DNA of 64,000 bases from positions 2,715,561 through 2,779,560 of the forward strand of contig MU006089.1 in NCBI GenBank assembly GCA_010093705.1, given 5' to 3'. Positions 48,479 through 64,000 of the stretch are shown here, piece by piece (position 1 is the stretch's first letter; the number at the start of each line of letters is the position of its first letter). This stretch comes from Patellaria atrata CBS 101060. Lineage: Eukaryota > Ascomycota > Dothideomycetes > Patellariales > Patellariaceae. The notes beneath the pieces are model-generated. The model did not search any database and was not told the DNA's origin. It saw nothing but the letters and a program-made list of their open reading frames with translations. Made by a program: the position numbers and the translations under genes.

Positions 48479-50155
48479 CTAAAAGCATTCGTCCAAACTA
48501 TCCACAAATGTTTTTCCCTTACCCCTAAATGTATCCTCAAGTCCCTGTTCATCTTCGTCTTCGTCCTCGTATTTTCTCAGAGCAGTTTCTTCCACCAGCA
48601 CTGGCAACGGAGTTCGACCTGTTAAGATGTCATACAACGAGTCCTCGCTCTCGTCTTCTTTATCAGGAGTCTTTAGACTCTTGGGCACTTGCATAACCTC
48701 TCGACCCTCCGGCCAAACGAGCATATAACTGCGAGTGTCGCTGAACATAATCCCAGGCCGCTGCGAAGACGACCTATGGAGCCAACGAGCATCCTGACGG
48801 GGTCCAGGTTTGGTGAAATGTGATGCAAGAGATAACAATTGCGGTACGGTTTTCATGGAGTCATACAGGTAGATGATGGGTTCGTCTTGCGTGCAATGAG
48901 TCAGAAGCAACTCAGAACGCGATGGGTGCCAAAGTAGCTGTCGGACTGCGGAGTGTTGAACTAGCACAGTGAGAGGTGTCAGTCTAGTGAGATCCCATAT
49001 CCATACTGTGGTTGGGAAGGAGTCCGAGCGGGTGGCGACGAGAGTCCCGTCGCTGTTGAAGGAAATGAGGGAGACTCCCTGTTTAAGGGAGGAGTCGGAA
49101 GGCGTGGTGGGGGCGATGGGAGGAGTAAATGGTTGTGGAGCCATGGTAAGGCGACGTGGTGAGGAAGTAGAGACGGTTTCCTGCCATACTTCACCGGTAG
49201 GAAGATGGATTGTAGGGGCGTGGTCGAGAAAGACGTTGGGTGAGAACTGGATGAGACTTAGTATTAATCATAGGTTTGGGAAAGTGTACATACTGTTCGC
49301 GTACTGAGAAGCGTGAGTTTTCTATCATAGCTCCCTACTGCGAGATAGTCTCCTCTCGGGCTCCATTTGATATTCTTGACTCCAGGACCTTGTATCTCCC
49401 CATCCTGCTCTCCGCAATATGTACGATATAGGTGTCCATCAGCTGTATAGATCATTACTCTGTACCCACTACTCGATGCATCCCAAACCGCCAACCATCT
49501 CCCATCCGGACTCCAACTCAACCCCTGCACATCCACCGTTGGTAAAGTTACCGTCCTGAGCACAAAATATGTGTCTGGTGCATGCAGAGTTAAGATATCC
49601 TGGGCTGCTGGTCGCGATAGTAATGCAAAGACTCCTGAAACCCCATATCCAAACCCTTTAGTTGAAAACTTCGGGTCTCTGATCTCCACGCTCCTTCCAC
49701 TTATGAGTGACCACACAACGACCTTAGCACCGAAGTCGGAAAATACCAGAGCTTCATTCTCGTTTCTCCCAAACTCAACATTGGCTATTTTTCCCATACC
49801 CCCACTTCCATTATTGATCGTAGCGGACCATCTCTCATCGCGGAGATCGTATATGCGCGCGTTGTCTTCGTTGGAGAGGAGGATGCGGCGCGATTCTCCT
49901 CCTGTACGGGGGCATGCAGACCAACGAATGAGAGACACTTTAGAGAAACTCTCGCCGGGTATTGGTATGCTTCTTGTTATCTCCAGGGAGCTGGTCTCTC
50001 GAATTTGAAGGCGGTTATTGATAATGCTTGCGATATGCGCATTGTCTGGGGATAGGATAGACAATTGCGAGCCTATAGATTTATTAGTACCAGTATATCA
50101 GATAGTTTGCGTCGAAATTACATTTGTACATCTGAGAAACTTCTAAACCATCCAT
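48479..50155 (-). CDS. WD40 protein of the WRAP73 (Wdr8) family
   Basis: WRAP73 orthologues act at spindle pole bodies or centrosomes and help anchor minus ends of microtubules. Three exons (50155-50122, 50072-49294 and 49246-48479; introns 49 and 47 bp) give 526 residues. The first exon encodes only MDGLEVSQMYK. WD-type blades are visible as SILSPDNAHIASIINNRLQI, ANVEFGRNENEALVFSDFGA, VQGLSWSPDGRWLAVWDASS, VKNIKWSPRGDYLAVGSYD and RKLTLLSTRT, and then SLISFNSDGTLVATRSDSFP and VRQLLWHPSRSELLLTHC. The join STRT|FSPNVFLDHAPTIHLP is typical of the family. The C-terminal 60 residues are Asp/Glu-rich. The two-part propeller layout and the length fit. Its 5' flank is only about 300 bp from a transposon end. 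Confidence 0.92.
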
Positions 50156-50209
50156 AGCGCGCAAAAGTTCTTCATTATGTGACTTCGAGAGTCCGTAAAC
50201 AAACCTCTA

Positions 50210-50463
50210 CTAAGCCGGCAAAAGTTCGGCTGTTTCGCGGAAGATCTTTCTGGTCTCATCGGTGTATTTGCACGCATCCTGGAAGTACTCTTTGGAGTCA
50301 TATCCTATCACATCATAACCATGGGCCATCTTTATAGTAATTTGACCTCTTGATACTTCGTTGTACCTCGAGCCAAACTGGTCCAATTTGGTCAGCGACC
50401 AGACATACGACTCGGGAGAGTATACGGAAACTTCAAAACGTACTTTTAGACCCAAACGAACTG
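50210..50463 (-). pseudogene. Open frame cut by the transposon (possible host-gene fragment)
   Basis: A minus frame reads out of the transposon end into host sequence: LGLKVRFEVSVYSPESYVWS, later ITIKMAHGYDVIGYDSKEYF and ETRKIFRETAELLPA, then stops at 50210. Composition is coding-like and it sits only 55 bp before the WD40 gene start. If it is a gene, its 5' part is separated by the insertion or lost. No family recognised. Confidence 0.25.
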
Positions 50464-50465
50464 TA

Positions 50466-50500
50466 ACGTGGTCTACAAGCGAGCGGCGCACTTTTCCACT
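50466..50500 (+). repeat. Left terminal inverted repeat of the pogo element
   Basis: ACGTGGTCTACAAGCGAGCG then GCGCACTTTTCCAC. It matches the right end apart from a few transitions and one missing 17-bp unit. Confidence 0.8.
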
Positions 50501-50546
50501 CCACCATAACCTTCAAACTTAATTACATAGCTACAACCCGAGAAGA

Positions 50547-52198
50547 TTAACTGCACTCAATTGAACTCTTTTCTTCAGACATTTCTTCGTCCTCTTAACA
50601 AGTTCGTATATTATGTCCAATCTTTCCGCACCTCCTACAACGCCGTGAATGCGACAATCCTTCCTCCAACTTCCTACCCGATTGTTGTCTAACAACCTCT
50701 TTCTAGGCAATCAATTCTTGTGCATCTTATACACTAAGTGCTCCTCCTGCTCGCACACGTGTTTTTTTTGGCCCGTCGTCGCTTCGCAAGTGCCTTATTA
50801 GCCTGTCGAAGCGTTCGGACCTCGTCGCGTAGAAGTGTCATTTCATGAGCAATAAGCTCCGTACCTTTTGCTAACTACTTAACAGCAGAGAAAATAGTAC
50901 TTGGAGAACTTCCTTGGTATCGGGCTATCCGATCCTTGACATGCTCAGACTGCGAAACAGCTTCTTTGGGGTTGTTTGGTGTCTGAGAGACCTATGGGTC
51001 GGCAGCGGGGGGAAGGGGTCCGGCCGGTGTTGGCGTCCGTAACTTCATATCAAGCTCTGAAATGACAGCTTAAGGGTCGTGAGGGACTAGGCCAGCGCCG
51101 AAGAAGCCCGCTTGGATATTTCCAATCGTCATAGTGTTGACGTGGGCGTCTTTTAACCCGGTGAAGAACTCGGTTTTGGTGATATGGATAATATGGGCTT
51201 TGATGAAGGCTTCGAGTTCCCGGCCGTACATCCGCTTCAGCACGCTGAAACATCCAACATCTAAAGGTTGGGTGAGGTGCGAAGAATGTGCAGGCAGGCA
51301 GGCAAACGGTGATAATGTTCTTTTCTTTGCAGAATTCCTCGAACTGAGCCGACAGATGGCTTGCATGACCGTCAAGAACAATCATCCGATAGACACCTTT
51401 CCGCCGGGCATCTATATGCTGGTGGAAATGCTGAATCCAGTCCATAACCGTCTCTTTATCCGTCCAGCCGTTTGGCGAGGTCTTGATGACCCAGGAAGGC
51501 GGGAGACTGCATTCGGTGTACCAGGATGCGAGGTGGTTGACGCCTTGCACAACCAAGAAAGGAAGCAGCACAAAACCGTCGCTGCTCACACACTCGATTG
51601 CCGTGGCCCATTCGCGATTGCCAGGTTGAAGTTGTTTGCCTCTACCACGCCTGTCGGCACGCGTGACAACCATGCCGCCGCAGATAACGCCCATCATGAA
51701 GCCTGTTTCGTCGAAGTTGTAAATATCGGCATCTTGGATCGCGTATTTCGCGCGCATGTTAGCTACCAGACGGAACCACGCGTTTATCGCGTCCGGATCT
51801 TCGCAGAGAGCTCTCTAGAAGTTGTAGGCACGAGAAAAACGCGTTTTCAGCTCTGGTCGTCGCTTGACGAAGTTCTCCGCCCAATGCTTCCTGACGCGTC
51901 CCGCGACGCGCTCCGCGAGGAGCAGATTGGCCATCTCTTCCACATTAGCCAGCCGGGACGGAAACCCTCGCGCATCTAGGTCCAGAATATATTGGACGAC
52001 CACCTCTTCTTCGGTTTCTGTCAGCTTTTGAGCATTAGGGCGATAGTCGCGCTTGGGAGTTCGGCCGTTTATTCTCGCGCGGAGGGTAGTTTCGGAGACG
52101 TTGTAGATCGCTGCGGCTTTCCGACGGCTGAGTTTTTTGTTGCGTTCGAGAGCTTGGATGGCAAGGACAATTTGACTTTCGTTTGATTGCGTAGGCAT
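50547..52198 (-). pseudogene. Fot1/pogo transposase, broken
   Basis: DDE transposase of about 550 residues with a CENP-B-like N-terminal helix-turn-helix region (KKLSRRKAAAIYNVSETTLR), then the catalytic triad: D in NFDETGF, D in VLDGHASH and D in TQPLDVGCF. A coiled coil (LLRDEVRTLRQANKALAKRR) and a C-terminal knuckle CRRCGKIGHNIRTC follow. Breaks seen: a TAG after SRAYNF, in place of the expected CAG; a 4-bp tandem expansion (GCAGGCAGGCAGG, about 51293-51305) that shifts frame inside CLPAHSSHLTQPLD; and a TAA after NIRTC where CAA is expected. The two stops fit CpA to TpA change. Confidence 0.82.
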
Positions 52199-52246
52199 TG
52201 TTGGTTGTGGAGAAATGCGTTATTATAGAAGAAAAAGTTATGATGC

Positions 52247-52297
52247 GTGGAAAAGTGCGCCGCTCGCTTGTGTGCGCCACTCGCTTATGGACCACGT
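52247..52297 (-). repeat. Right terminal inverted repeat of the pogo element, with internal duplication
   Basis: Read inward from 52297: ACGTGGTCCATAAGCGAGTG GCGCAC, then a second unit ACAAGCGAGCGGCGCAC, then TTTTCCAC. The two units differ at two sites. Confidence 0.8.
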
Positions 52298-55200
52298 TAG
52301 AGGACTTTTAAACTGGACACCAACCCTACCAATTCTACTCTGTGGAGATTTTAATCTACACTATAGCTGGTGGAACCAACAAGCCACTACCTCTAAGATA
52401 GCCAAGTCAAGAACCATGGTCAAATGGCTAAGGGACCATAACTGTCAGCTCCTTAATCTATACAATACTGGCACATTCTTTAGATCTAACCTAACAAGAC
52501 AATCAATTATCGATCTAGCATTTGTCTCATCTAACTTTCAGCACGCCACCTGGGATAACTGGGCCATCACTGAAGAGACAGGGAGTGACCATAAGACAAT
52601 TGCATTCTCTATGTTTACTAGGAAGATAGAAAGGTTCCAGAACCCTCTACAAAGCCCACCATATGCTTTAAAGAAGGCAGACTGGGAGGAGTTTATAAAC
52701 ACACTTAAAGTAAGATCGCAAGATCTCAGGGTAGATCAAAGGATAAAGCAAGTAGAGGACTACACCCTAACCCATTCAATCAACTTACTGGCGTAAAACA
52801 GTCAAGAACAGCAAGGCTGGATAGACAAGATGGAAGAACTAGTAGTGGACCTTACGTATTGCCTCACAACTGCAGCAGACAAAGCCATCCCAAAAGCCAG
52901 AATCTGCGAATACTCTAAAACATGGTGGAACAAAGACATATTTAATAAGAGGAAGAAGATGACCCAACTTAGGAGAAGGCTTAAGATCTATTATCCAAGA
53001 AACCAGGAATAGCTGAACTATGCATTTAAAGCTGCACGGAATGACTACTTTCACACCATTAGAAAGGCAAAGTCTGATTACTGGAATAGCTTTCTTGAGA
53101 ATGCTAGAGGGAAGGAAGTCTTCACTGCACTAAAGTACACTAAAGATAAAACACTACGCAACATTCCCACACTGCAGTACTCTAGTAATGGTATACTAAC
53201 ACAAGCGGAAAGCTTTAAAGACAAATGCACAGCTCTCATTACCACCTTATTCCCTACACCACCAAGCACAACAGCCTGCCAATGGGAAACCTACTCACAG
53301 GATCCAAGCTGGGAATGGCCACGACTGGATAGTGTAGAAGTGGAGGCAGCAATTAATTCTAGCTCACATAGGAAAGCCCCAGGAGGAGATAAACTTTCGT
53401 TTACCATTATCTAGAAAGCGTACCCAGCAATCTCGGACATTTTCTCGGACATTTTCAATAGGCTGTATAAGCTCCTATTTCAAGTTGGCTATCATCCTAG
53501 GATATGGAGGGAGGCAGTAGGAGTTATGCTGCCAAAGCCTAATAAAGACGACTACTCTATACCAAAGTTATATAGGATCATCTCCTTACTTAACTGCCTA
53601 GGCAAGACTTTAGAAAAGATCATGGCAACAAGACTAGGCTACCTAGCAAACACCACACACCTACTTCAGCACTCACAGATGGGAGGGAGGCAACAGCGCT
53701 CTGCTATTGATGCAACACTCTTACTGCTGGAGTATATCCAGAGCCAAAAGGCTGGCAAGTCAGGGAGTAGGAAAGTTGCTACAACATTACTGTTTGATGT
53801 GAAAGGAGCGTTTGACCATGTATCAAAGAACCAACTACTATCTACCTGCAAACAACTAGGACTCCCATATAGCCTCTACCAATGGATCTCATGCTTCTTA
53901 ACTCACAGAAAGATGCAACTGATATTTAATGGGGAAAGGCAAGAAATGCATAGTATAATTTTGGCATACCTCAAGGCTCACCAATCTCGCCGATTCTCTT
54001 CTTAATCTACATTAGGAAGATATGTAAAGATAGGGAGTGGATTAACTTACTAACTTATATTGATGACTTTTCACTGACAACAGTCTCCACGTCTGTAAAG
54101 AAAAACTGCAAGCTGCTAGAACAGGCTGCCCAAGACCTGATCTTAACAGCTAAAGAGCATGGCATTGAATTTGATATTGCAAAAACGGAACTCATCCACT
54201 TTCATAATAAGAGAACACCAATCCAGGACTCAATCTGCCTCTTCAACCAAGTGGTCCAGCCAGAGCTAATGGTTAGATGGCTTGGGATGTTCCTAGACTC
54301 AAAACTCACCTTCAAACAGCATGTAGAAAGAAAGATTAAGAGTGCAGAAAATGCAATATACATGATTCAAAGGCTAGGAAACACACAGAAAGGTCTATCA
54401 ATGCAAGCGGTGCGTAAGCTGTATATTGCATGCGTCAACTCAATAGCAGACTATGGAGTACCAGTATGGTGGAACCCAAATCACAGGAACAGCCAGCAAG
54501 TTGGAAGGTATCAAACATTGCAGAATAAAGCATTAAGGATGATCTTAGGTGCCTTTAAGACTTCCCCAAGCATGGCCATGGAAATTGAAGCAGATCTACC
54601 TCCCCCAGCTGTTAGATTTGAAAAGCTATGCAATTCTTATGCCCTCAGAACTCTAAAGTTCCATAAAAACCATCTAGTTAAGAGAGTTCTCTGGGAAGAG
54701 CTTGAAAGAGATGACTTAGAAGCAACCTTAGACTCTAACTCAGAAGCAGGCAATACTCCTATCAAGTATATCACAAGACCAAACACTCAACTCCTGTCCT
54801 TATTGAAGAGAACTCAGGAGTTTATCACCAACTGGAAGATGGAAAAGATTTCCATACATAATGCCCAACCTTGGAGACCAAAGTTAAAGGCGTTATTTAT
54901 CATCTCCAGCAAGGATAAGGAAAAAGCATCAAAGCAACATGACAAAATAATTAGAGACCTAGAATCAAGCATAAAAGATGGGCTAGTCAGTGTTTACTAC
55001 ACTGATGGGTCTAAAGATGGCAACAGAAATGCTGCAGGAGCATGTCAGATAGGAAATAATCGGCGTATTTTGTTTGCCAGTAACTGGAACTTAGGGGATA
55101 GCGTTGAGATTATGGATGCAGAGCTATTTGCCATTCTCAAAGCACTTGAAAGAGAAAAGGCCCAACGTGAGAAAGGACAATCCATTGCCAAAAACCTATG

Positions 55201-55990
55201 CGTTTTTGTGGACAGCCAGGCAGCACTTAAGAGACTACAAAAGAATGCCCTCGATGGAGGACAAGAATTAAGTATAAAGATAACAGACCTATGTAATACC
55301 CTTACTAATGAATGGGAAATGAGAATTACCTTCAGCTGGGTTCCCGGTCATAAAAACATCTTTGGGAATGACATAGCAGACAAGCTGGCTAAAAAGGGAC
55401 TGGGCAGCAAGCCTATAGGCACTTCATTCACATCACTCAGTTATATTAAACGGAAAGCCAAAGAAAAGATCTTATCTGATTGGAAACAAAGCTGGGAAGC
55501 CAATAGCAAGAAACAAGGCAAACATTATACACGCATTTGCAGAGATCTTGTGCGTTTCTCACTCGGTATACCCAAATCCAATGTCCAGAAGAAGATCCAA
55601 GCAGCATACTTTCAACTTAAGACTGGTATTGGATTTTTCAAATCTTACTCTAAGGTGATTGGGAAAGATGAAGAAGGGAAGTGCTTCAGAGACTGTCAAT
55701 CACTCCAAACACCAACACACCTAATTTTACATTGTGCACACTACTCTAAGGAACGCAAGGAAATGAGGAAGGAACTAAGATCAAAGCTAACAATGGAAAA
55801 GCTTTTTTGCACAAAGTTAGGCAAACAGGTGTTATTCAAGTTTTTAGCAAAAACTCAAATCTCTACCGCCAGATGGTTAATACACGCAGGAGATATAGAT
55901 AGAGTAGAAGCATAGAGTCTACAGAAGATAACAAGATGTATGGCATAAAAATGGAAATTAGAAAAGAGATGGTGAAGAGGAAGAAAGACG
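52298..55990 (+). mobile_element. Tad-type LINE, 5'-truncated, degenerate
   Basis: Non-LTR retrotransposon. From the left: the end of an apurinic-type endonuclease (ILLCGDFNLHYSWWNQQ, SIIDLAFVSSN, GSDHKTIAF), reverse transcriptase (KAPGGDKLSF, PKPNKDDYSIPKLYRIISLL, TLLFDVKGAFDHV, YIDDFSL catalytic motif), then RNase H and a C-terminal Cys/His region. In-frame stops lie at 52794 (TAA for CAA), 53010 (TAG for CAG) and 53412 (TAG for TGG or CAG), and one frameshift falls near 53963 before FGIPQGSPISPILF. The coding match starts at the TA beside the pogo element, so the 5' end including ORF1 is absent. The 3' limit is approximate. Confidence 0.87.
54251..55915 (+). CDS. LINE 3' frame: reverse transcriptase thumb, RNase H and Zn region
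   Basis: Longest open part of the LINE, 554 codons. WLGMFLDSKLTFKQHVERKI follows the reverse transcriptase core. The RNase H domain has YYTDGSKDGN, ELFAILKALE, VFVDSQAALKRL and HKNIFGNDIADKLAK, supplying the D-E-D-D acidic residues. SLQTPTHLILHCAHYSKERK is the C-terminal Cys/His segment of Tad/I-type elements. No stop interrupts this part. It is not an independent gene. Confidence 0.8.
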   Translation: MVQPELMVRWLGMFLDSKLTFKQHVERKIKSAENAIYMIQRLGNTQKGLSMQAVRKLYIACVNSIADYGVPVWWNPNHRNSQQVGRYQTLQNKALRMILGAFKTSPSMAMEIEADLPPPAVRFEKLCNSYALRTLKFHKNHLVKRVLWEELERDDLEATLDSNSEAGNTPIKYITRPNTQLLSLLKRTQEFITNWKMEKISIHNAQPWRPKLKALFIISSKDKEKASKQHDKIIRDLESSIKDGLVSVYYTDGSKDGNRNAAGACQIGNNRRILFASNWNLGDSVEIMDAELFAILKALEREKAQREKGQSIAKNLCVFVDSQAALKRLQKNALDGGQELSIKITDLCNTLTNEWEMRITFSWVPGHKNIFGNDIADKLAKKGLGSKPIGTSFTSLSYIKRKAKEKILSDWKQSWEANSKKQGKHYTRICRDLVRFSLGIPKSNVQKKIQAAYFQLKTGIGFFKSYSKVIGKDEEGKCFRDCQSLQTPTHLILHCAHYSKERKEMRKELRSKLTMEKLFCTKLGKQVLFKFLAKTQISTARWLIHAGDIDRVEA

Positions 55991-56065
55991 GTTTTCCAAC
56001 AATTTCCTTTATATGGAGATTAAACGTAATAGCTTTCCTTTACATATAAATTACCAGTAGGTTTT

Positions 56066-56186
56066 CTTCCCTCTAGCATTCTCAAGAAAGCTATTCCAAT
56101 GGTCAGAATTTGCCTTTCTGATGGTGTGAAAGTATTCATTCCTGTCAGCTTTAAATGCGCAGTTCTGTTGTTCCTGGTTCCTTGGG
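56066..56186 (-). mobile_element. Inverted fragment of a second LINE copy
   Basis: The reverse complement of this stretch matches 53000-53115 of the LINE closely: both hold CATTTAAAGCTG, TTTCACACCAT, AGAAAGGCAAA and TGGAATAGCTTTCTTGAGAA then TGCTAGAGGGAAG. By eye roughly nine bases in ten agree. It lies in opposite orientation just beyond the 3' end of the main copy. Confidence 0.85.
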
Positions 56187-57276
56187 TGATGTGAGCGGTC
56201 CCTAGTAATTGTATTCCAACTATCTAGTCCAGATGCTATCTACAATCAAGATAAAGAAGAAGAGAAGAGGCCGAGGGCAGGTTCAAGGAGAATCTTACTG
56301 GCTGATCTTCGGGTTCAGGGCACGCCCATACCATTAGGCTCTAGCCAGTTACATCGACGTGTACTGTGTCCGCAAGAGTGACGCAACGTTGATATCTTCT
56401 AGGGAATCTTCGTCTTCCGTTCCAAAAGCGATTGTTTAATACAATATCGGGGTGATAATGTCGGAAAGATGAGTTGAAACTTCGCATAGATGCTTTAAGT
56501 CCTTAAGTTCCCATGGCTGTTTAAGTTCGCCGGTCTAGCTTTACTGACTTTGGAACAAAACTACCCACTTGAAAATCGTCACAGGAATTTCCACCAGCAG
56601 ATCTAATAACATTGTCTATTATTGTAAGTCTGATCTTTTGTTTTATGGTATAGGATGTGCTTAGACGATAAATACTGGGTTGCGGTGTGATTGTAGCGTC
56701 CAAATGGAGACCGTGAGCTGACGAGGTGAACAATAAATCTTACCACCATTAACGACAGCTGGTCAACGGGCCATAGGAAGGATCGGGATCGATTACCTTA
56801 AGGGATCGCTATTAGAATGCAGTTGCCAGAAGATCGTTGTGAAATTGTAGAAGCGGGTGACATAGCAAAGACTTGACAAATCCTAAAGGTACGGGCAATA
56901 TCCCTAAGGTGCTTGCGTACCAAAGTAAAGATTTCCTCCCATCTCAAAGCGAAATGTGTCTAAAGCCACGAACCAAAAGACTATTTGTAGCTGTAAGTAA
57001 AATATATAATTATAGCACTAACAAGGCGCTTACGCGAGTGTTTATCACTTTCGTAATCCGATTGCCCCTAATAAGCGGGTTTTCGAAAATAGACTTAGCG
57101 GAAGCATTTTCGAGAACACTAACTGATTGTGTGAATTACCTCCCTTTCGCCAGGTGTTCCATGCAATAGGAATTTTGAATTGTAGTCCCAAAACTCGGTT
57201 CTTCCTGTCCTCGATTGGGGAATCTTAGATCTCACTTCCTGAATTTGCCCTGGGTGCTCTAGTTTTCGAGGAACCG
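56187..57276. other. Intergenic, no supported gene
   Basis: Short frames only (for example 56873-57169, +) with no motif. Some may be decayed transposon sequence. Confidence 0.4.
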
Positions 57277-59586
57277 CTATTCGAACACCTTTAAGCTGTG
57301 TAATTCAATAGCCGCTCGTCGTATCTCCCGCGTAAATACAGAACACCTGTCTCCTATCTGCTTCGTTAGACTTCTCTCCGAGTCCAATCCTCGCTTCCTC
57401 TTCCAATTTGATGAGATGATACCCAGGGCAGGCCGTGGTTCGCAAACCTGTGCCCGCTCAAAATCGATCACCATGACCTGGCTAGTCTCCTCATCCCACA
57501 GCATGTTACGAGGCATAAGGTCCTTATGTAAAACCCGCAGCTCATGGATTGCTCGGACTGCGCAGTCAACCTGTTGAGTGATGTATTGCCTGTTCTTGGT
57601 GGTGAGGTGTTGATAGATAGGTTTTCCTCCGAAACTAAGAAACATCATGTGAACAAGCTCTGTAATGCCTTCATAGAAATAGGGAGTGTCCAGATCTATG
57701 TTACCTAAATGGACCGGCACATGGATACCCTGGATTGGACGGAGGTGCTCGTAGATGGTAGCCTCCCGTTTGAGGCGATGAACGAAGTCGATAGGGGTGC
57801 ATTTAGCGGCTACGGTGTATCCGTGCGATCTCAGTCTGACACGGAATAGGACGCCGCATGCTCCAGGAACACCTACAGGATTGCAGTCGATATCTAGAGT
57901 TTTTGAGAGTTGTTGGCGAATGAGATCAAGGAAGGTAGGCGTATCAATCTGATGATAGCTCTCCCCGTGATCGCGTACGTTTGGACACAACATATCGAGC
58001 GGACCACCCTCAACTAAACCGCGCAAACAATTTTGCGTACAGTATTGTCCACTTTGTGCTCCTCGGCGGGAATTGCGACTAGGCGACGAGCTGCCGGCAG
58101 TGGCTTGGGTGCCAGACGGGCATTGGGGTGAGGATATTTGTCGACTTGGAGTGTCCGGATCAGGCTCGTCATCACTAGCTTCATGCTGATCCTGGGGTCG
58201 CGAGCAGTTAGGAGAGCCAGTTAGAGCTGGTCTTCCCCTGAGCTGGATGGGCGACGTACGAAGGAATACATCGTGCCGAGGTGGTCGGTACTCCGATGAT
58301 GGCGCGTCTTGTAGAGGAATGACATCCAGCATGTCATCGTACACAACCTCCCAGCTATTCAGTTGAGCGGCGGCCTCGGCCCGCCACTTCTGACCCCGAG
58401 GCGGTGTCTTCAGCGCCTGAAGGGTAAAAGCCAGCATCTGCCCAACGGCTGTTAGGTGCAGGCGATTCGCTCCGCCCGAATTTGGTACCCATCCTGTGGA
58501 TTCCCCGACGTCACCCTTGGGGACGGATAGGAAGTAGTGCACCGTCCTAGGATCATCGGGCACCCGTAGGAAGATGAATGCTTCGCCAGTGCACACGCAA
58601 CCATACTTTAACCCAACCTTCACTATATAAGAAAATGCTTGTGTGATGACTGCAGCCATTAGTCGACGAAAGTGGTCTCGCGGAGTATCAGTTTCGCGAC
58701 ACTGGATCACGTCCTCGAGTTCCATATCATCTAGACCCTCGTAGATATAACTGAGCGGGAGCTTGTGTGGCGCCTTATATTCAACAATGAAGGCGGCAAT
58801 GCGATTCTCTATGTTCTGAGTGCTTATGTTATAGACGCAAAATTGATCTGCACGAGGACGGGACGGTCGTGCTGCTACGCGAATTGCGGTCGATTCTATT
58901 GGGTCTGTCGAGCTTAATGGCCTTGCATCTTTGGACTGAGCCTGTAAGCGTGGTGACCGTCGTGGCTGAGTTCCCGATAGCGTCGTTTGCTCCATGCCCT
59001 CTTCGAGTAGTTCCGTGCTGAGGGTGTTGGCGTGATTCTCGAAGCTTATAGAACCTTGTAGACAAAACTTCCGTCGAAGCGATCGGTCGTTGTACATTTG
59101 TTTGATAATCAGTGATACCGGGTCCTCGACAGTGGAGCGCTGAAAGACGTTTAGGTCTAGCTCAGAACTCAACATCCTCCGTCGGACAGCCTCCCCAGAC
59201 TCTGTCAGGGTATGCACTGAGGTGAAGTGCCGCTCCGAGACAAAATCCAAACTCATAAGGTCGTCCCAGATCGCTTCCTGATGCGCCGCGAAATCGTCCC
59301 ATATAAGGACCCTTTCGGGTCGAAGCTTGTTATTCGCATTCGCAGGGCCGCCTCGCGTCGACAACGACACATTGGTCTGAACGGCGAGATTTGAGTGAAG
59401 ATGATTGTGACAGGCATCGAGGAACTCGGGAAGAGTCGTCTTGCGGGTTTTCTCTTCAGCTTTTTCCTGTGCCAGCTCTGCTTCTTCGCGTCTGCGCTGC
59501 TCTTCTTCGCGGGCTTGTTCCGCTTCTTGCCGCCTGCATTGCTCTTCAAGCCAGAGTCGTTTGTAATCGGGCGATTGTTGGGACAT
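57277..59586 (-). CDS. Coiled-coil, PD-(D/E)XK-like nuclease and protein kinase-like protein
   Basis: Single open frame of 769 residues. Residues 8-50 form a charged coiled coil (EEEQRRREEAELAQEKAEEK). The central region at about 245-400 has FCVYN..., IAAFIVEYKAPHKLPLSYI with E269-Y270-K271 (an ExK as in PD-(D/E)XK nuclease folds) and FIFLRVPDDPRTVHYFLSV. A Ser/Pro/Asp-rich linker (430-510) leads to YCTQNCLRGLVEGGPLDMLC, a Cys-containing lead-in I recall from fungal kinase-nuclease families. The kinase domain holds VAAK595, HKDLMPRN (H687, D689, N694) and VIDFE (D708, DFE for DFG), so its catalytic residues appear complete. The domains are inferred from motifs. It is intact amid decayed sequence, and function is unknown. 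Relatives are known as repeated, variable families, some near Crinkler-type effectors. Confidence 0.8.
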   Translation of the reverse strand: MSQQSPDYKRLWLEEQCRRQEAEQAREEEQRRREEAELAQEKAEEKTRKTTLPEFLDACHNHLHSNLAVQTNVSLSTRGGPANANNKLRPERVLIWDDFAAHQEAIWDDLMSLDFVSERHFTSVHTLTESGEAVRRRMLSSELDLNVFQRSTVEDPVSLIIKQMYNDRSLRRKFCLQGSISFENHANTLSTELLEEGMEQTTLSGTQPRRSPRLQAQSKDARPLSSTDPIESTAIRVAARPSRPRADQFCVYNISTQNIENRIAAFIVEYKAPHKLPLSYIYEGLDDMELEDVIQCRETDTPRDHFRRLMAAVITQAFSYIVKVGLKYGCVCTGEAFIFLRVPDDPRTVHYFLSVPKGDVGESTGWVPNSGGANRLHLTAVGQMLAFTLQALKTPPRGQKWRAEAAAQLNSWEVVYDDMLDVIPLQDAPSSEYRPPRHDVFLRTSPIQLRGRPALTGSPNCSRPQDQHEASDDEPDPDTPSRQISSPQCPSGTQATAGSSSPSRNSRRGAQSGQYCTQNCLRGLVEGGPLDMLCPNVRDHGESYHQIDTPTFLDLIRQQLSKTLDIDCNPVGVPGACGVLFRVRLRSHGYTVAAKCTPIDFVHRLKREATIYEHLRPIQGIHVPVHLGNIDLDTPYFYEGITELVHMMFLSFGGKPIYQHLTTKNRQYITQQVDCAVRAIHELRVLHKDLMPRNMLWDEETSQVMVIDFERAQVCEPRPALGIISSNWKRKRGLDSERSLTKQIGDRCSVFTREIRRAAIELHSLKVFE

Positions 59587-60161
59587 GGTGGTGCGATGAT
59601 AATAATGGGACGAGATTTGTTAGGTAAGGTTTGTTTATAGTGGTTGTGGTTTAGGGGAAAACACCGGCGGGATAATCCGAACCAATCGGTTGCAAGACGA
59701 ACAGTATGCATTTAATGTCCTGGACGAGAATGCTGACTAGAGGCAACCAAAACAAACTCTAAGGCGCCGCGGATTGCTTAGACAGCTTCGGCTGTAAAGT
59801 TCAATAAAAAAAAAAAGTGCAATGTCCTATTGTGGAGAGCCATCACATAAAAGTTCTTTAACACAATCTACTACTAGGAAACCGCTCCACGGCTCAATCT
59901 ACACTAGCTGGTTTGCCCTTATGTCTTGTCCAGAATGAACGAGTCTGGTTTCCACAAAATGTTTTACTATGGCCCCTAAAAGAAAACCCTACTAACATGC
60001 TCTACCCCATTGAACTCACGCATAAACCTCTCGCGCAGTCACAGCTTTGGAAAGGTGCGTGAACTTTACATTTCTCCTTTGTGACTAGTGCGTGGGCTGT
60101 GGGAAAAACGTCCTTAATCCAAAGGTTTTGTGGTCAGTAAATTGATACTCCGGACACGCAA
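59587..60161. other. Intergenic
   Basis: Promoter side of the nuclease-kinase gene and 3' flank of the AAA pseudogene; no gene seen. Confidence 0.45.
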
Positions 60162-61350
60162 TTAAGATGCTCTACCTGCCCGCCCGTTGAGCCTACTACT
60201 AACCAACCGTTCCAATTCCTCATCATGGACATCCGGAGCTGCGCAGAAGGTGCGCGATCGAGAAATGAAATGGCCCTGAATCCGCTTCCTTGCGTCGCTT
60301 CCTAACTCGTCATATCCCAACATGAGATGGATTCGGCTAAGAATTCCATCGTCAAACTCGGACACTCTGTTTGTCACCAAGAACATGATTCCGTCTAGAT
60401 ATTTCAGTTTGTAGAGAAACATAGTGACGAGGCTGTTGCGACGTAGGTCTCGAGATGGACGCCGCTCGGGATAGACGTCAGCTTCATCTAGAAGAAGAAC
60501 CGCATCCCGGTGGGTGGCAATTTGAAAGATATCTGAGAGCTGACCTTCCACTACCCTTGCTTTGGTACTTGATTCGCCAGCGGAGATCTTGAGAGTTAGA
60601 AAGGAAGGTTTCATTGAAGAGGAGAACAGGTTACATACTGAATAAAGAGGTCTTCTAAAGATGTTCAGCAACAGCCTTAGCTGTGAGCGTCTTTCCTAAT
60701 CCCAGGCTGGTAATTGTAAGAGAGCGCAGACAAGAGGGTACGGGGTACCATATTAAAATAGCACAATAAAGCTGCAACCTTTCCCAGCAACAAAATCGTC
60801 CAATTTAACCCATGCGCTCGATTCGTACGGGCCTCTGCAAGAGCCATGATAGTCTCTTCATGTTCCTTGGGAATCGTTAAGCAATCCAAAGGTACAGTGA
60901 ACCACTGGATCTCCTCGATACCGGCGACGAGGTTTTCCGGTATGTATCCATAGATTAGCTTGATGGGCAGCTAGTAGGGTGATGTATTTCACCCCACAAC
61001 TTTTCGTTAAGGCTGAAACCAGCTACTGTAGGACAGCAGATAAGCAAACATTCCTCCGTTACGTCAGCGGGATCTAAGCCTGTGCTCCTGACCTGTTCGG
61101 GCAGCGACTGAGAAGGGCGTAAGAGGTCAAAAGGGAGGTTTGAACTTGCGTCGTCTTCCTCATTAATCTTTGGTCTGGAATAATTTGGACCCATTCTCCG
61201 AGAAAAAGATGAATCGACCATAATCCGGCTGTCGACAAGTGGGACGGAGAAAGGCCACACGGTACAACTGCGGGGGAAAGTCAATGACACGAAGATCACG
61301 TGACTTAGACGCAATGGACGCAGAAGGAGTTCTACATCCAACACGTCCAA
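60162..61350 (-). pseudogene. AAA-family ATPase, decayed C-terminal part
   Basis: Matches in order the large fungal AAA proteins with an upstream accessory domain. Upstream pieces: SRIMVDSSFSRRM and CLLICCPTVAGFSLNEKLWG. Then, in another frame, LVAGIEEIQWFTVPLDCLT and PKEHEETIMALAEARTN. Next come LDDFVAGKGCSFIV, a remnant of the P-loop (LGLGKTLTAKAVAEHL, then a stop), RRPLYS, and the Walker B region AVLLLDEADVYPERRPSRDL with MFLVTNRVSEFDDGILSRIH. At least two frame changes and one stop are visible, besides possible introns. The N-terminus (usually 300 or more residues) is missing. It reads as a dead copy of a multigene family. Confidence 0.75.
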
Positions 61351-62180
61351 ACACTCGGAATAGGACTCGGAGGAGAAATGCTTAAGGACGCTCCTTTACG
61401 CTTATATTTAGATTCTTCGTAGTTCTTCTTACCAACATATCTTACTATAAGATTGGATGTTACGATCTTTGACTTAACTCACCTTTATCATACTATTTCG
61501 TACAGTATCACTTATCTCTACTGTGAAGCGTTGAGAGAGTTAAGGGGAAGCAAGTTGTATTGTCAACTTGAAGTGCAAACCTTTACACGTTCTATCACGA
61601 AGCGGAAACCTAACCCTTCTAGGAAGGAGGTCTCTCATCAGTGAGAAACCTTGCGCGTGTTTATACCTATCTGGTTCCGGCTTAGAGAAGTATAAACTCC
61701 CGTCGTTAACAAAAAACTTAAAAAAAACCATTCGAGAAATATGTGTGATGGAAGCAATAGCGTGCTGATAGTGATTCTCTCTTTTATGTTAATATGCACT
61801 CTCGACTTTCTTCTGAATAGTAAGCCGTCCCCTGTAATCCTGAATTGCTTCCGTTGTTCTATACTGAGGTGTTTCCTGTGTTATTGGTCTCTTTTGATGC
61901 AATGGTGCACCTGGGCGCCTCGATCGGCTGTCTATGCCGGCCGAGATCCTTCTTATTCAAGCACGATTGTTTTGTTGGCAATGCTCTCTTGTCAGGTTTC
62001 ACCCAAGGCTTTGAAAGAGCCATAGGGAAGTAAGTCAACACGTAGGCATAGACTTGAAAGGTACAAATATCTGAAATATCCAGCTTTCCTTTCAATCTTG
62101 AAGTTGAGCAGAACTATCTAAGCTAAACAGTGATCTATGTGCTGATCTTCAATATATTGTGCGAGCATCCATCAAGAAGA
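61351..62180. other. Intergenic, no supported gene
   Basis: Short frames without motifs. It may hold unrecognised remnants of the neighbouring pseudogenes. Confidence 0.4.
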
Positions 62181-63489
62181 ATGATCTCAGGCGCAAAAAT
62201 GATTGTCAATGAATTCTTCAATAACAATATCGAGGTCAAATTCGTCCGCCTCACCTGGGTTGACTTCTTAGGGGCCCTACGTACTCGGATTATTACGAAG
62301 AAGCGATGGTTGGATTTAGCAAATGGCTCAAACCATTACTCACTAGCTCTGAACTGCTTGATTATTCCTATTTCTACAGCGCCATGTGTTTCTCCGAAGG
62401 CCCTAAAGCTTAGGAATTGCGACCAGATTGGCAAAGTCTACGACTGTGCGGCTTCTCGCCGGTACACTCATCAGTCATGTGTTTTACATGCCACTTGAGA
62501 TTCTCAAACATCTTTACAAGGTGTCCAAGAAGCTTTTTAAAGAGCCGACATGCCGAATTTCAAGCAGCTACCGCGTCTCAAAGTCTTGATGGGCTTCGAG
62601 ATTGAATTTGTCCTTCTCGATGATGTATTTAACCTCGCAACATCCATAGACCGTATAGCCGGCTATTCCATGGAATTCGAGGACAGAACTTGATAATTTT
62701 TGAGGAGATCATAGCCGCGCTGGAAATATCTCGGATCGATGTGTACTACTTCCACACAGAAATTGCGGTCCAACTCGAAATAGCGCTTTCTCCGCTCCTG
62801 CCCTTGGATGCTATTGATTGCCTCATGATGGCCTAGGAGACGATTCGTACTATTTCTATCCGCCATGGAATAAGAGTTAGCATGACACCAAACCTATATT
62901 TGACGGTCTGCAAAATGGGTGCCACGAGCATCTATCCTTGACTTCTGCTAAAACATTAGAAACCGACTCGTTTTTAGCTGGCATCTTGCAAAAGGTGGGA
63001 TCTCTGTGCGCTTTTGATATGCCGAATTTGGATAGTTACTATCGGGTTATATACGATGGGTCAGGCATGTGGATAGGCTAGGGAACGGAGAACAGAGACT
63101 TACCCATCCGTCAAATCACCCCATCCCGCTGGGAAATTTGATTTTTGGATGCTACGACCAACGTGTATCTCTTCATTGGGGCCCTGCTTTCTGCTGGAAT
63201 GGCCGGAATAAAGCGTAAAGAGCCGTTAAATATTCGCGATTGTCCCATTTTGGCCGGGAAGCTCGGTGTCGGGGAAGCTAGACGGCAGCTTGGGAAATAT
63301 GGTATCACAGAACCTATGCGTCCAAAATTGGAGGTCTCGTTAGACTCCTTGAAAGAAGACAAAGAATGTGAGACCTGGTTTGGATCTGAACTATTCGCCG
63401 AGTATGTCAAAGTAAAGGATAAGGAAGTTGAACATTTCTCGGGAATGACAGAAGAGCAGCGGAGACAGAAGTTCCTAGTCTATTTCTGA
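62181..63489 (+). pseudogene. Glutamine-synthetase / FluG-like enzyme, decayed
   Basis: Pieces follow the order of a glutamine-synthetase-type catalytic domain over about 1.3 kb. They are KFVRLTWVDFLGALRTRII (N-terminal beta-grasp), RPDWQSLRLCGFSP, VLMGFEIEFVLLD (the E-x-E metal motif), GYSMEFEDRT, LEISRIDVYYFHTEI, FDGLQNGCHEHLSLTS (the catalytic region), FLAGILQKVG, GTENRDLPIRQITPSRWEI and a C-terminal run from DATTNVYLFIGALLSAGM to QKFLVYF. At least three frame changes and several stops occur, for example WIG-stop-GTENRD, where TGG became TAG. The gene is clearly dead; the last 114 codons are still open. Type I-like/FluG enzymes rather than the normal fungal gln-1 are the closer match. Confidence 0.8.
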
Positions 63490-64000
63490 ACCTCGGCGGA
63501 TTTATCATACCAACGCATTATCGCTTTGTTGTTTCGCTTATTCTGTAACTTTCATGTGCTAGTATGCTCTTGGGGCGGTGGAGAGGTGAGCAAAGAGCAG
63601 GTTGTATCCGGTGGAAGATGGAGTTCTCATTCGAACTTGTACTGAATTACACCGAGCATCGGTGAATAAGGAAGAAATTAGAATGTATGAGGTTAATATT
63701 CCAGTATAATTTATAAGATAAGGAAAATGTGGATAGTTTTACACATTGAACTACTATCGTAACCTGACCTGCTACCTGATGCGTTCTAACCGAAGAAGTC
63801 CAATCCAAGAAATAACCATTGGGGGTAACACCGTGAAGCTGTATAGATGTACATACCATACCCGGAATCCATTCATGAAATAGTGATCGTAATGCCGCGA
63901 AAATGCTTAAGCCAACCCGACTATCCATCGTACTGTACAATATCCAAATGCTGCTGTTTTCCCTGCGACCTACTTAGGCGACGTGGGGAGGATCAACAGG
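63490..64000. other. Intergenic to window end
   Basis: AT-rich; a 97-codon minus frame has no motif. Nothing supported. Confidence 0.45.

What the first reader, a model, noticed from the sequence alone, without database searches (positions are those of the whole stretch)
57277..59586. Intact coiled-coil / nuclease-like / kinase protein inside a decayed block
A 769-codon uninterrupted frame carries an ExK nuclease-like motif (E269, K271) and complete kinase residues (K595, H687-D689, N694, D708) behind a charged coiled coil. Every other gene-like sequence from 50.2 to 63.5 kb is broken, so survival suggests either recent arrival or selection. Nuclease plus kinase in one chain hints at a conflict, defence or self-recognition role; that is inference. 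The first kinase glycine-rich loop is atypical and the DFG is DFE.
Basis: partly seen in the sequence, partly recalled or inferred. Interest (0 to 1): 0.75.

Follow-up and report, generated by a model that had tools for sequence, protein, structure and literature searches.

The report
Spore-killer (SPOK) family gene homolog
This fungal gene has the same build as the SPOK spore-killer genes, single genes that make a poison and its antidote in one protein so that spores lacking the gene die; it is one more, apparently unbroken, member of a known family, sitting among broken genes and jumping elements.

Summary
By published anatomy it is a homolog of the SPOK spore-killer proteins of filamentous ascomycetes. 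In order it has a charged N-terminal helix, an unassigned domain, a disordered linker, a nuclease-like domain (D247, E269-x-K271, QxxxY), a second linker, the SPOK cysteine cluster (C-x3-C-x13-C-x5-H exact) and a Kdo/APH-like kinase. From QxxxY to the kinase base, spacing equals SPOK3's to within one residue. In SPOKs the nuclease kills, by DNA damage, and the kinase region protects (PMC6660238, PMC9972908). Not shown here: a nuclease fold (models failed), alignment to any SPOK sequence (no fungal sequence held), expression, selection or drive. The four Pfam-recognisable neighbours between 50.5 and 63.5 kb are broken, without strong RIP.

The parts
57277..59586 (-). SPOK-family homolog, 769 aa, single uninterrupted ORF
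   Evidence: anatomy compared with PMC6660238 passages
59431..59586 (-). residues 1-52: charged N-terminal helix (coiled-coil-like; 26 of 52 residues charged)
   Evidence: (helix 6-70, pLDDT 83-86 over 11-40)
58987..59430 (-). residues 53-200: domain 1, no family match (SPOK domain 1 likewise unassigned)
   Evidence: PMC6660238
58852..58986 (-). residues 201-245: first disordered linker
58312..58851 (-). residues 246-425: PD-(D/E)XK-like nuclease domain (fold inferred, not shown)
   Evidence: motif order and spacing; weak secondary-structure model
58774..58782 (-). E269-Y270-K271, ExK core; K271 corresponds by position to SPOK3 K240
58627..58641 (-). Q316-AFS-Y320, QxxxY motif (SPOK3 294-298)
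58051..58311 (-). residues 426-512: second disordered linker (strongest at 441-500)
57952..58041 (-). C516-x3-C520-x13-C534-x5-H540-x4-H545 cysteine cluster
57412..57909 (-). residues 560-725: small kinase domain (Kdo/APH/Pkinase-like)
57505..57528 (-). H687-K-D689-LMPR-N694 catalytic loop; D689 corresponds by position to SPOK3 D667

Best explanation
The gene encodes a member of the SPOK family, a one-protein toxin/antidote. By analogy with Podospora SPOKs, the nuclease-like centre (D247, E269, K271, QxxxY) damages chromosomal DNA in nuclei that lack the gene. The C-terminal cysteine cluster and kinase (D689) neutralise that toxicity wherever the gene is present. The N-terminal helix probably dimerises and, with domain 1, may set specificity. 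The gene would therefore favour its own transmission at meiosis or the vegetative retention of the DNA carrying it. Shown here: intact frame, domain order, motifs and spacings. Inferred: nuclease fold, homology to SPOK by direct alignment, catalytic activity, killing, resistance, present-day drive.
For: Published SPOK3 anatomy (PMC6660238, passages): coiled coil in the first 40 aa; domain 1; disordered 170-210; nuclease 210-400 with K240 and QxxxY 294-298; disordered 400-490; C493-x3-C497-x13-C511-x5-H; ELK-like kinase with base D667. The window protein has the same order. Its offsets to SPOK3 are +31 at the core lysine, +22 at QxxxY, +23 at all three cysteines and +22 at the kinase base; 369 residues separate Y of QxxxY from the kinase base in both. 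In 300,000 shuffles of residues 272-688 the cysteine pattern occurred 95 times anywhere and 0 times at SPOK3 spacing +-3; QxxxY, a much weaker sign, met its spacing in 4,271. Disorder peaks between the domains fall at 201-240 and 441-500. Kinase matches on residues 546-769, all above Pfam's cut-offs: Pkinase 1.1e-8, Kdo 1e-7, APH 1.5e-6; PMC6660238 also compares the SPOK kinase with Kdo/ELKs. SPOK-like genes are patchy across Pezizomycotina and often pseudogenes; three in P. anserina have transposons nearby (PMC4022471).
Against: No SPOK sequence could be aligned; membership rests on motifs and distances printed in papers. The last histidine is at x4, not the printed x7. The core lysine lies 9 residues nearer to QxxxY than in SPOK3, and D247 lies 24 residues before the lysine, where the SPOK3 motif spans 21. 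Podospora Spok2 is reported with Asp-Glu at its kinase residue (PMC4022471); if that is the same position, here it is Asp-Leu. No nuclease family or fold match was found. No tandem repeat was detected in the coiled-coil DNA, where Podospora Spoks have a variable one. The codon-preference score gives no support for coding. In a published yeast assay four of six Fusarium homologs showed no effect despite conserved catalytic residues, so an intact frame does not prove function.
Confidence: 0.88

Rival explanations
1. A Crinkler-type (CRN) REase-kinase protein: same toxin logic (nuclease with regulatory kinase) but an effector delivered into other organisms, not a transmission driver.
For: PMC5289972 passages: REase coupled to a protein kinase makes up about one-sixth of CR C-termini; PMC12693581 passages say that the nuclease-kinase architecture is widespread, citing Zhang 2016 (not held).
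Against: No Crinkler domain among Pfam matches at E up to 10; the N-terminus is a charged helix; the cysteine cluster sits at the spacing described for SPOK. Whether CRN fusions carry such a cluster was not tested. The two kinds may be distant cousins.
Confidence: 0.05
2. A FunK1 or Ffk filamentous-fungal kinase with a non-nuclease N-terminal half, working as a signalling kinase.
For: Fungal-specific, expanded, poorly understood kinases exist (PMC3203195 and PMC3591445, passages and one section).
Against: No FunK1 family among Pfam matches at E up to 10; matches are to Pkinase, Kdo, APH and Bud32-type kinases; ExK, QxxxY and the cysteine cluster at SPOK positions would be unexplained. Ffk sequences were not compared.
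Confidence: 0.03
3. A SPOK homolog that is already dead or fixed: the frame is open by recent arrival only, with no expression, killing or resistance.
For: Spok-like genes are often pseudogenes; four of six Fusarium homologs had no effect in yeast; the recognisable neighbours are decayed.
Against: The SPOK3 positions tested by mutation (K240, C493, C497, C511, D667) all have counterparts here, in a 2.3-kb frame without a lesion, while the nearby GS-like gene carries at least three in-frame stops in stretches recognised by eye.
Confidence: 0.4

Closest known systems
SPOK1-4 of Podospora (Spok meiotic drivers)
   Same: Order of parts, ExK and QxxxY nuclease motifs, first four ligands of the cysteine cluster with exact spacing, kinase base, distances from QxxxY on
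   Different: 9 fewer residues between core lysine and QxxxY; second histidine at x4, not x7; Asp-Leu where Spok2 is reported with Asp-Glu (if the same position); no detectable DNA repeat in the coiled coil; function untested
FuSpok1/FuSpok2 and other Fusarium Spok homologs (IPR052396, meiotic drive suppressor kinase family)
   Same: Reported with conserved catalytic residues; often in accessory regions, 33 of 408 in known Starships (PMC12693581 passages and section 17)
   Different: No sequence held, so no alignment; no DUF3435 captain among 31 ORFs scanned here; the other genes of the window look like core genes
Crinkler REase-kinase effectors (such as CRN8)
   Same: Nuclease and kinase in one chain, nuclease toxic, kinase thought regulatory
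   Different: No CRN domain matched
FunK1 kinases
   Same: Fungal-specific kinases with lineage-specific expansions in non-syntenic regions
   Different: No FunK1 family matched

Membership tests
SPOK family | N-terminal coiled-coil/charged helix, about 40 aa | tested here: met
   Helix 6-70, pLDDT 83-86 over 11-40; 26 of residues 1-52 charged. Dimerisation not tested
SPOK family | PD-(D/E)XK catalytic motif with core lysine (K240 in SPOK3) | tested here: met
   D247...E269-x-K271; motif only; D-to-K span 24 against 21 in SPOK3
SPOK family | PD-(D/E)XK fold | tested here: inconclusive
   No nuclease match; models pLDDT 36.8 and 42.1; 486 fold matches with E up to 10, none at or below 0.001. 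Predicted order strand-strand(with ExK)-helix(with QxxxY)-strand is compatible
SPOK family | QxxxY motif downstream of core lysine | tested here: met
   Q316-Y320; 369 residues from Y to kinase base in both; distance to lysine 9 shorter; weak alone (4,271 of 300,000 shuffles)
SPOK family | Cysteine cluster C-x3-C-x13-C-x5-H | tested here: met
   C516, C520, C534, H540 exact; 0 of 300,000 shuffles at this place
SPOK family | Final histidine of the cluster at x7 | tested here: not met
   Next histidine is at x4 (H545). The published mutants that I read concern the cysteines, not this histidine
SPOK family | Kinase domain resembling ELKs, base D667 | tested here: met
   Pkinase, Kdo, APH matches above their cut-offs; D689 at offset +22
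SPOK family | Full-length sequence similarity to SPOKs | not testable with these tools
   No fungal collection; scans by six short peptides each in viral and prokaryote contigs found no relative
SPOK family | Spore killing and resistance by one gene | not testable with these tools
   Needs crosses or a yeast assay
Crinkler (CRN) | CRN N-terminal domain (ubiquitin-like, LxLFLAK) | tested here: not met
   No such family among Pfam matches at E up to 10; that Pfam holds a Crinkler model is recalled, and HMMER's filters drop most matches above about 0.1
FunK1 kinases | FunK1 kinase domain | tested here: not met
   No such family among Pfam matches at E up to 10; that Pfam holds a FunK1 model is recalled, same filter caveat
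Starship cargo | DUF3435 captain recombinase nearby | tested here: inconclusive
   None in 31 ORFs scanned across the window; not all ORFs scanned, and an element may extend beyond the window

The most novel reading that the evidence does not exclude
An active, single-gene poison-antidote driver is segregating in this fungus and is the only functional gene left in an otherwise decayed insertion block, kept open by its own drive and not by any benefit to the host; the block would be the carcass of the element that brought it in.
Probability: 0.2. Interest if true: 0.6.

Novelty: new member of a known kind. Interest (0 to 1): 0.42.

Why it matters
In SPOK genes one protein both kills and protects, which PMC6660238 calls unique among meiotic drive systems, and how the kinase protects is reported as still undiscovered (PMC9972908, PMC12693581; passages). 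A homolog that keeps the five SPOK3 positions tested by mutation (K240, C493, C497, C511, D667), but has a shorter nuclease segment, a shifted last histidine and Leu after the kinase base, is a natural variant for testing which features matter. A lone intact driver in a decayed block would also test whether drive keeps such genes open.

Tried and rejected
Searched for relatives with the whole protein in viral contigs and genome contigs, and with the nuclease and kinase segments in viral contigs: none confirmed (in one search eleven and two stretches matched a peptide pattern but encode no relative), as expected for a fungal gene. No whole genome is held for the window. Structure prediction without an alignment gave pLDDT 36.8 (whole) and 42.1 (residues 236-420); the fold search returned no match at or below E 0.001 (best 0.033), and I draw nothing from its list. 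PDB sequence search of the centre gave only BAX chains at E 0.53 and above, taken as chance. One weak Pfam hit of the centre (Phage_holin_9, E 0.0065, below its cut-off) is taken as chance. NCBIfam's best kinase matches (lanthionine synthetase LanKC, KDO kinase, Bud32) are all far below their curated cut-offs. Codon preference could not tell coding from non-coding in this genome. RIP as the main cause of decay: not supported; the composite index is negative in 12 of the 14 1-kb windows from 50 to 64 kb, and 0.06 and 0.07 in the other two (50-51 and 61-62 kb), so a slight old RIP there is not excluded. Terminal repeats around the gene: only short, imperfect pairs that look like chance. CRN and FunK1 were considered first and set aside (see membership rows). 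Before recognising SPOK I believed from memory that similar proteins are common in Aspergillus and Penicillium; this is recall and no call tests it.

Full report
What is there. The window holds genes with Pfam matches to RNA-dependent RNA polymerase, D-arabinono-lactone oxidase, dihydrouridine synthase, GMC oxidoreductase, Gtr1/RagA, Rax2 and WD40 repeats. Together with a Fot1/pogo-like DDE_1 element and a LINE with endonuclease, reverse transcriptase and RNase H, this fits a filamentous ascomycete (inference; the species was not identified). No whole genome is held. On the minus strand, 59586-57277 is a single ATG-started frame of 769 codons. The other five frames carry 32-37 stops each, and the chance of such a frame is about 1e-15 from its own composition. 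Codon preference gives no support either way.

The anatomy. Residues 6-70 are modelled as a helix, with pLDDT 83-86 over 11-40, the only well-modelled part. Residues 53-200 match no family. A disorder scale is high at 201-240 and 441-500; it is also high over residues 1-60, which I read as the charged helix and not as disorder. Between the two linkers are D247, E269-x-K271 and Q316-AFS-Y320. Then follow C516-x3-C520-x13-C534-x5-H540 and a small kinase with K595, H687-x-D689, N694 and D708-F-E. Pfam places residues 546-769 with Pkinase, Kdo and APH (1.1e-8, 1e-7 and 1.5e-6, all above the curated cut-offs). NCBIfam's best matches are LanKC, KDO kinase and Bud32, all below their cut-offs. The protein ends about 60 residues after the DFE.

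What it matches. The SPOK3 anatomy in PMC6660238 (passages; methods section 41) gives: coiled coil in the first 40 aa, a domain of unknown function, disorder at 170-210, a PD-(D/E)XK nuclease with K240 and QxxxY at 294-298, disorder at 400-490, cysteines 493, 497 and 511 in C-x3-C-x13-C-x5-H-x7-H, and an ELK-like kinase with base D667. The window protein has each in the same order. Offsets to SPOK3 are +31 at the lysine, +22 at QxxxY, +23 at each cysteine and +22 at the kinase base: in net terms one 9-residue length difference, between the lysine and QxxxY. Podospora SPOKs themselves differ in lysine-to-base distance (427 in SPOK3, 433 in SPOK1; positions, computed). In 300,000 shuffles of residues 272-688 the cysteine pattern occurred 95 times anywhere and never at the SPOK3 distance +-3 from the base. 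Not matching: the last histidine is at x4, not x7; D247 to K271 is 24 residues where the SPOK3 motif spans 21; the residue after the base is Leu, where Spok2 is reported with Asp-Glu (PMC4022471 section 12), if that is the same position; the coiled-coil DNA shows no tandem repeat.

How it most likely works. In SPOK3 the K240A change abolishes killing but not resistance, and changes in the kinase base or the cysteines give toxic alleles that wild-type Spok3 suppresses (PMC6660238). SPOK1 toxicity in E. coli and yeast goes with DNA damage and needs the nuclease (PMC9972908, passages). Of six Fusarium homologs tested in yeast with the kinase base changed, two, from F. poae, were toxic and four had no effect (PMC12693581, section 17). 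By analogy this protein would damage DNA through its centre and protect through its C-terminal part. That it does so is inference.

Surroundings. The neighbours are a Fot1-like element (50475-52271, 25-bp perfect terminal repeats, transposase with at least one in-frame stop and one frameshift), a LINE that appears cut at its 5' end and has stops and a frame change (52272 to about 56 kb), an AAA ATPase gene with an apparent frameshift just after Walker A (about 60.16-60.9 kb), and a glutamine-synthetase-like gene with at least three in-frame stops and frame changes (about 62.1-63.5 kb; Pfam matches its last part, 63145-63489, the rest was recognised by eye). RIP is not strong: the composite index is negative in 12 of 14 1-kb windows from 50 to 64 kb and at most 0.07 in the other two. 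No DUF3435 captain was seen among 31 ORFs scanned, so a Starship is neither shown nor excluded. SPOK-like genes are reported as patchy across Pezizomycotina and often pseudogenes, with transposons near three of them in P. anserina (PMC4022471, section 14). An open frame in such company suggests later arrival than its neighbours or upkeep; the two cannot be told apart here.

Limits. No fungal sequences are held, so there is no direct alignment, tree or dN/dS. The nuclease fold is not shown: no nuclease match in Pfam, NCBIfam, PADLOC or PDB sequences and models too poor to use. The 185-residue model does place ExK on a strand and QxxxY on a following helix, as the fold requires (recalled), at block pLDDT under 60.

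Verdict. A SPOK-family homolog with counterparts of the SPOK3 positions tested by mutation intact: a new member of a known kind.

Noticed in passing
50475-52271: Fot1/pogo-like element with 25-bp perfect terminal inverted repeats; transposase frame has at least one in-frame stop and one frameshift. A second, imperfect copy of the repeat end follows at about 52272-52290.
   Followed up: partly
52990-53117 and 56063-56190: 128-nt inverted repeat, 86% complementary: probably a second LINE fragment in opposite orientation at the 3' end of the main LINE copy.
   Followed up: partly
60162-61350: AAA-ATPase gene remnant on the minus strand, just upstream of the SPOK homolog, with an apparent frameshift right after Walker A.
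   Followed up: partly
62130-63489: Glutamine-synthetase-like pseudogene (PF00120 match at its C-terminal end) with several stops and frame changes.
   Followed up: partly
50001-64000: Transposon-bearing decayed block without a strong RIP signature (two of 14 1-kb windows marginally positive), so its decay looks mostly like plain drift of stops and indels.
   Followed up: partly
57280-57951: Kinase segment also matches the bacterial defence kinase models MAD6 (E 1.9e-9) and PD-T4-6 (best 2.8e-7) in PADLOC, probably only as a shared kinase core.
   Followed up: no
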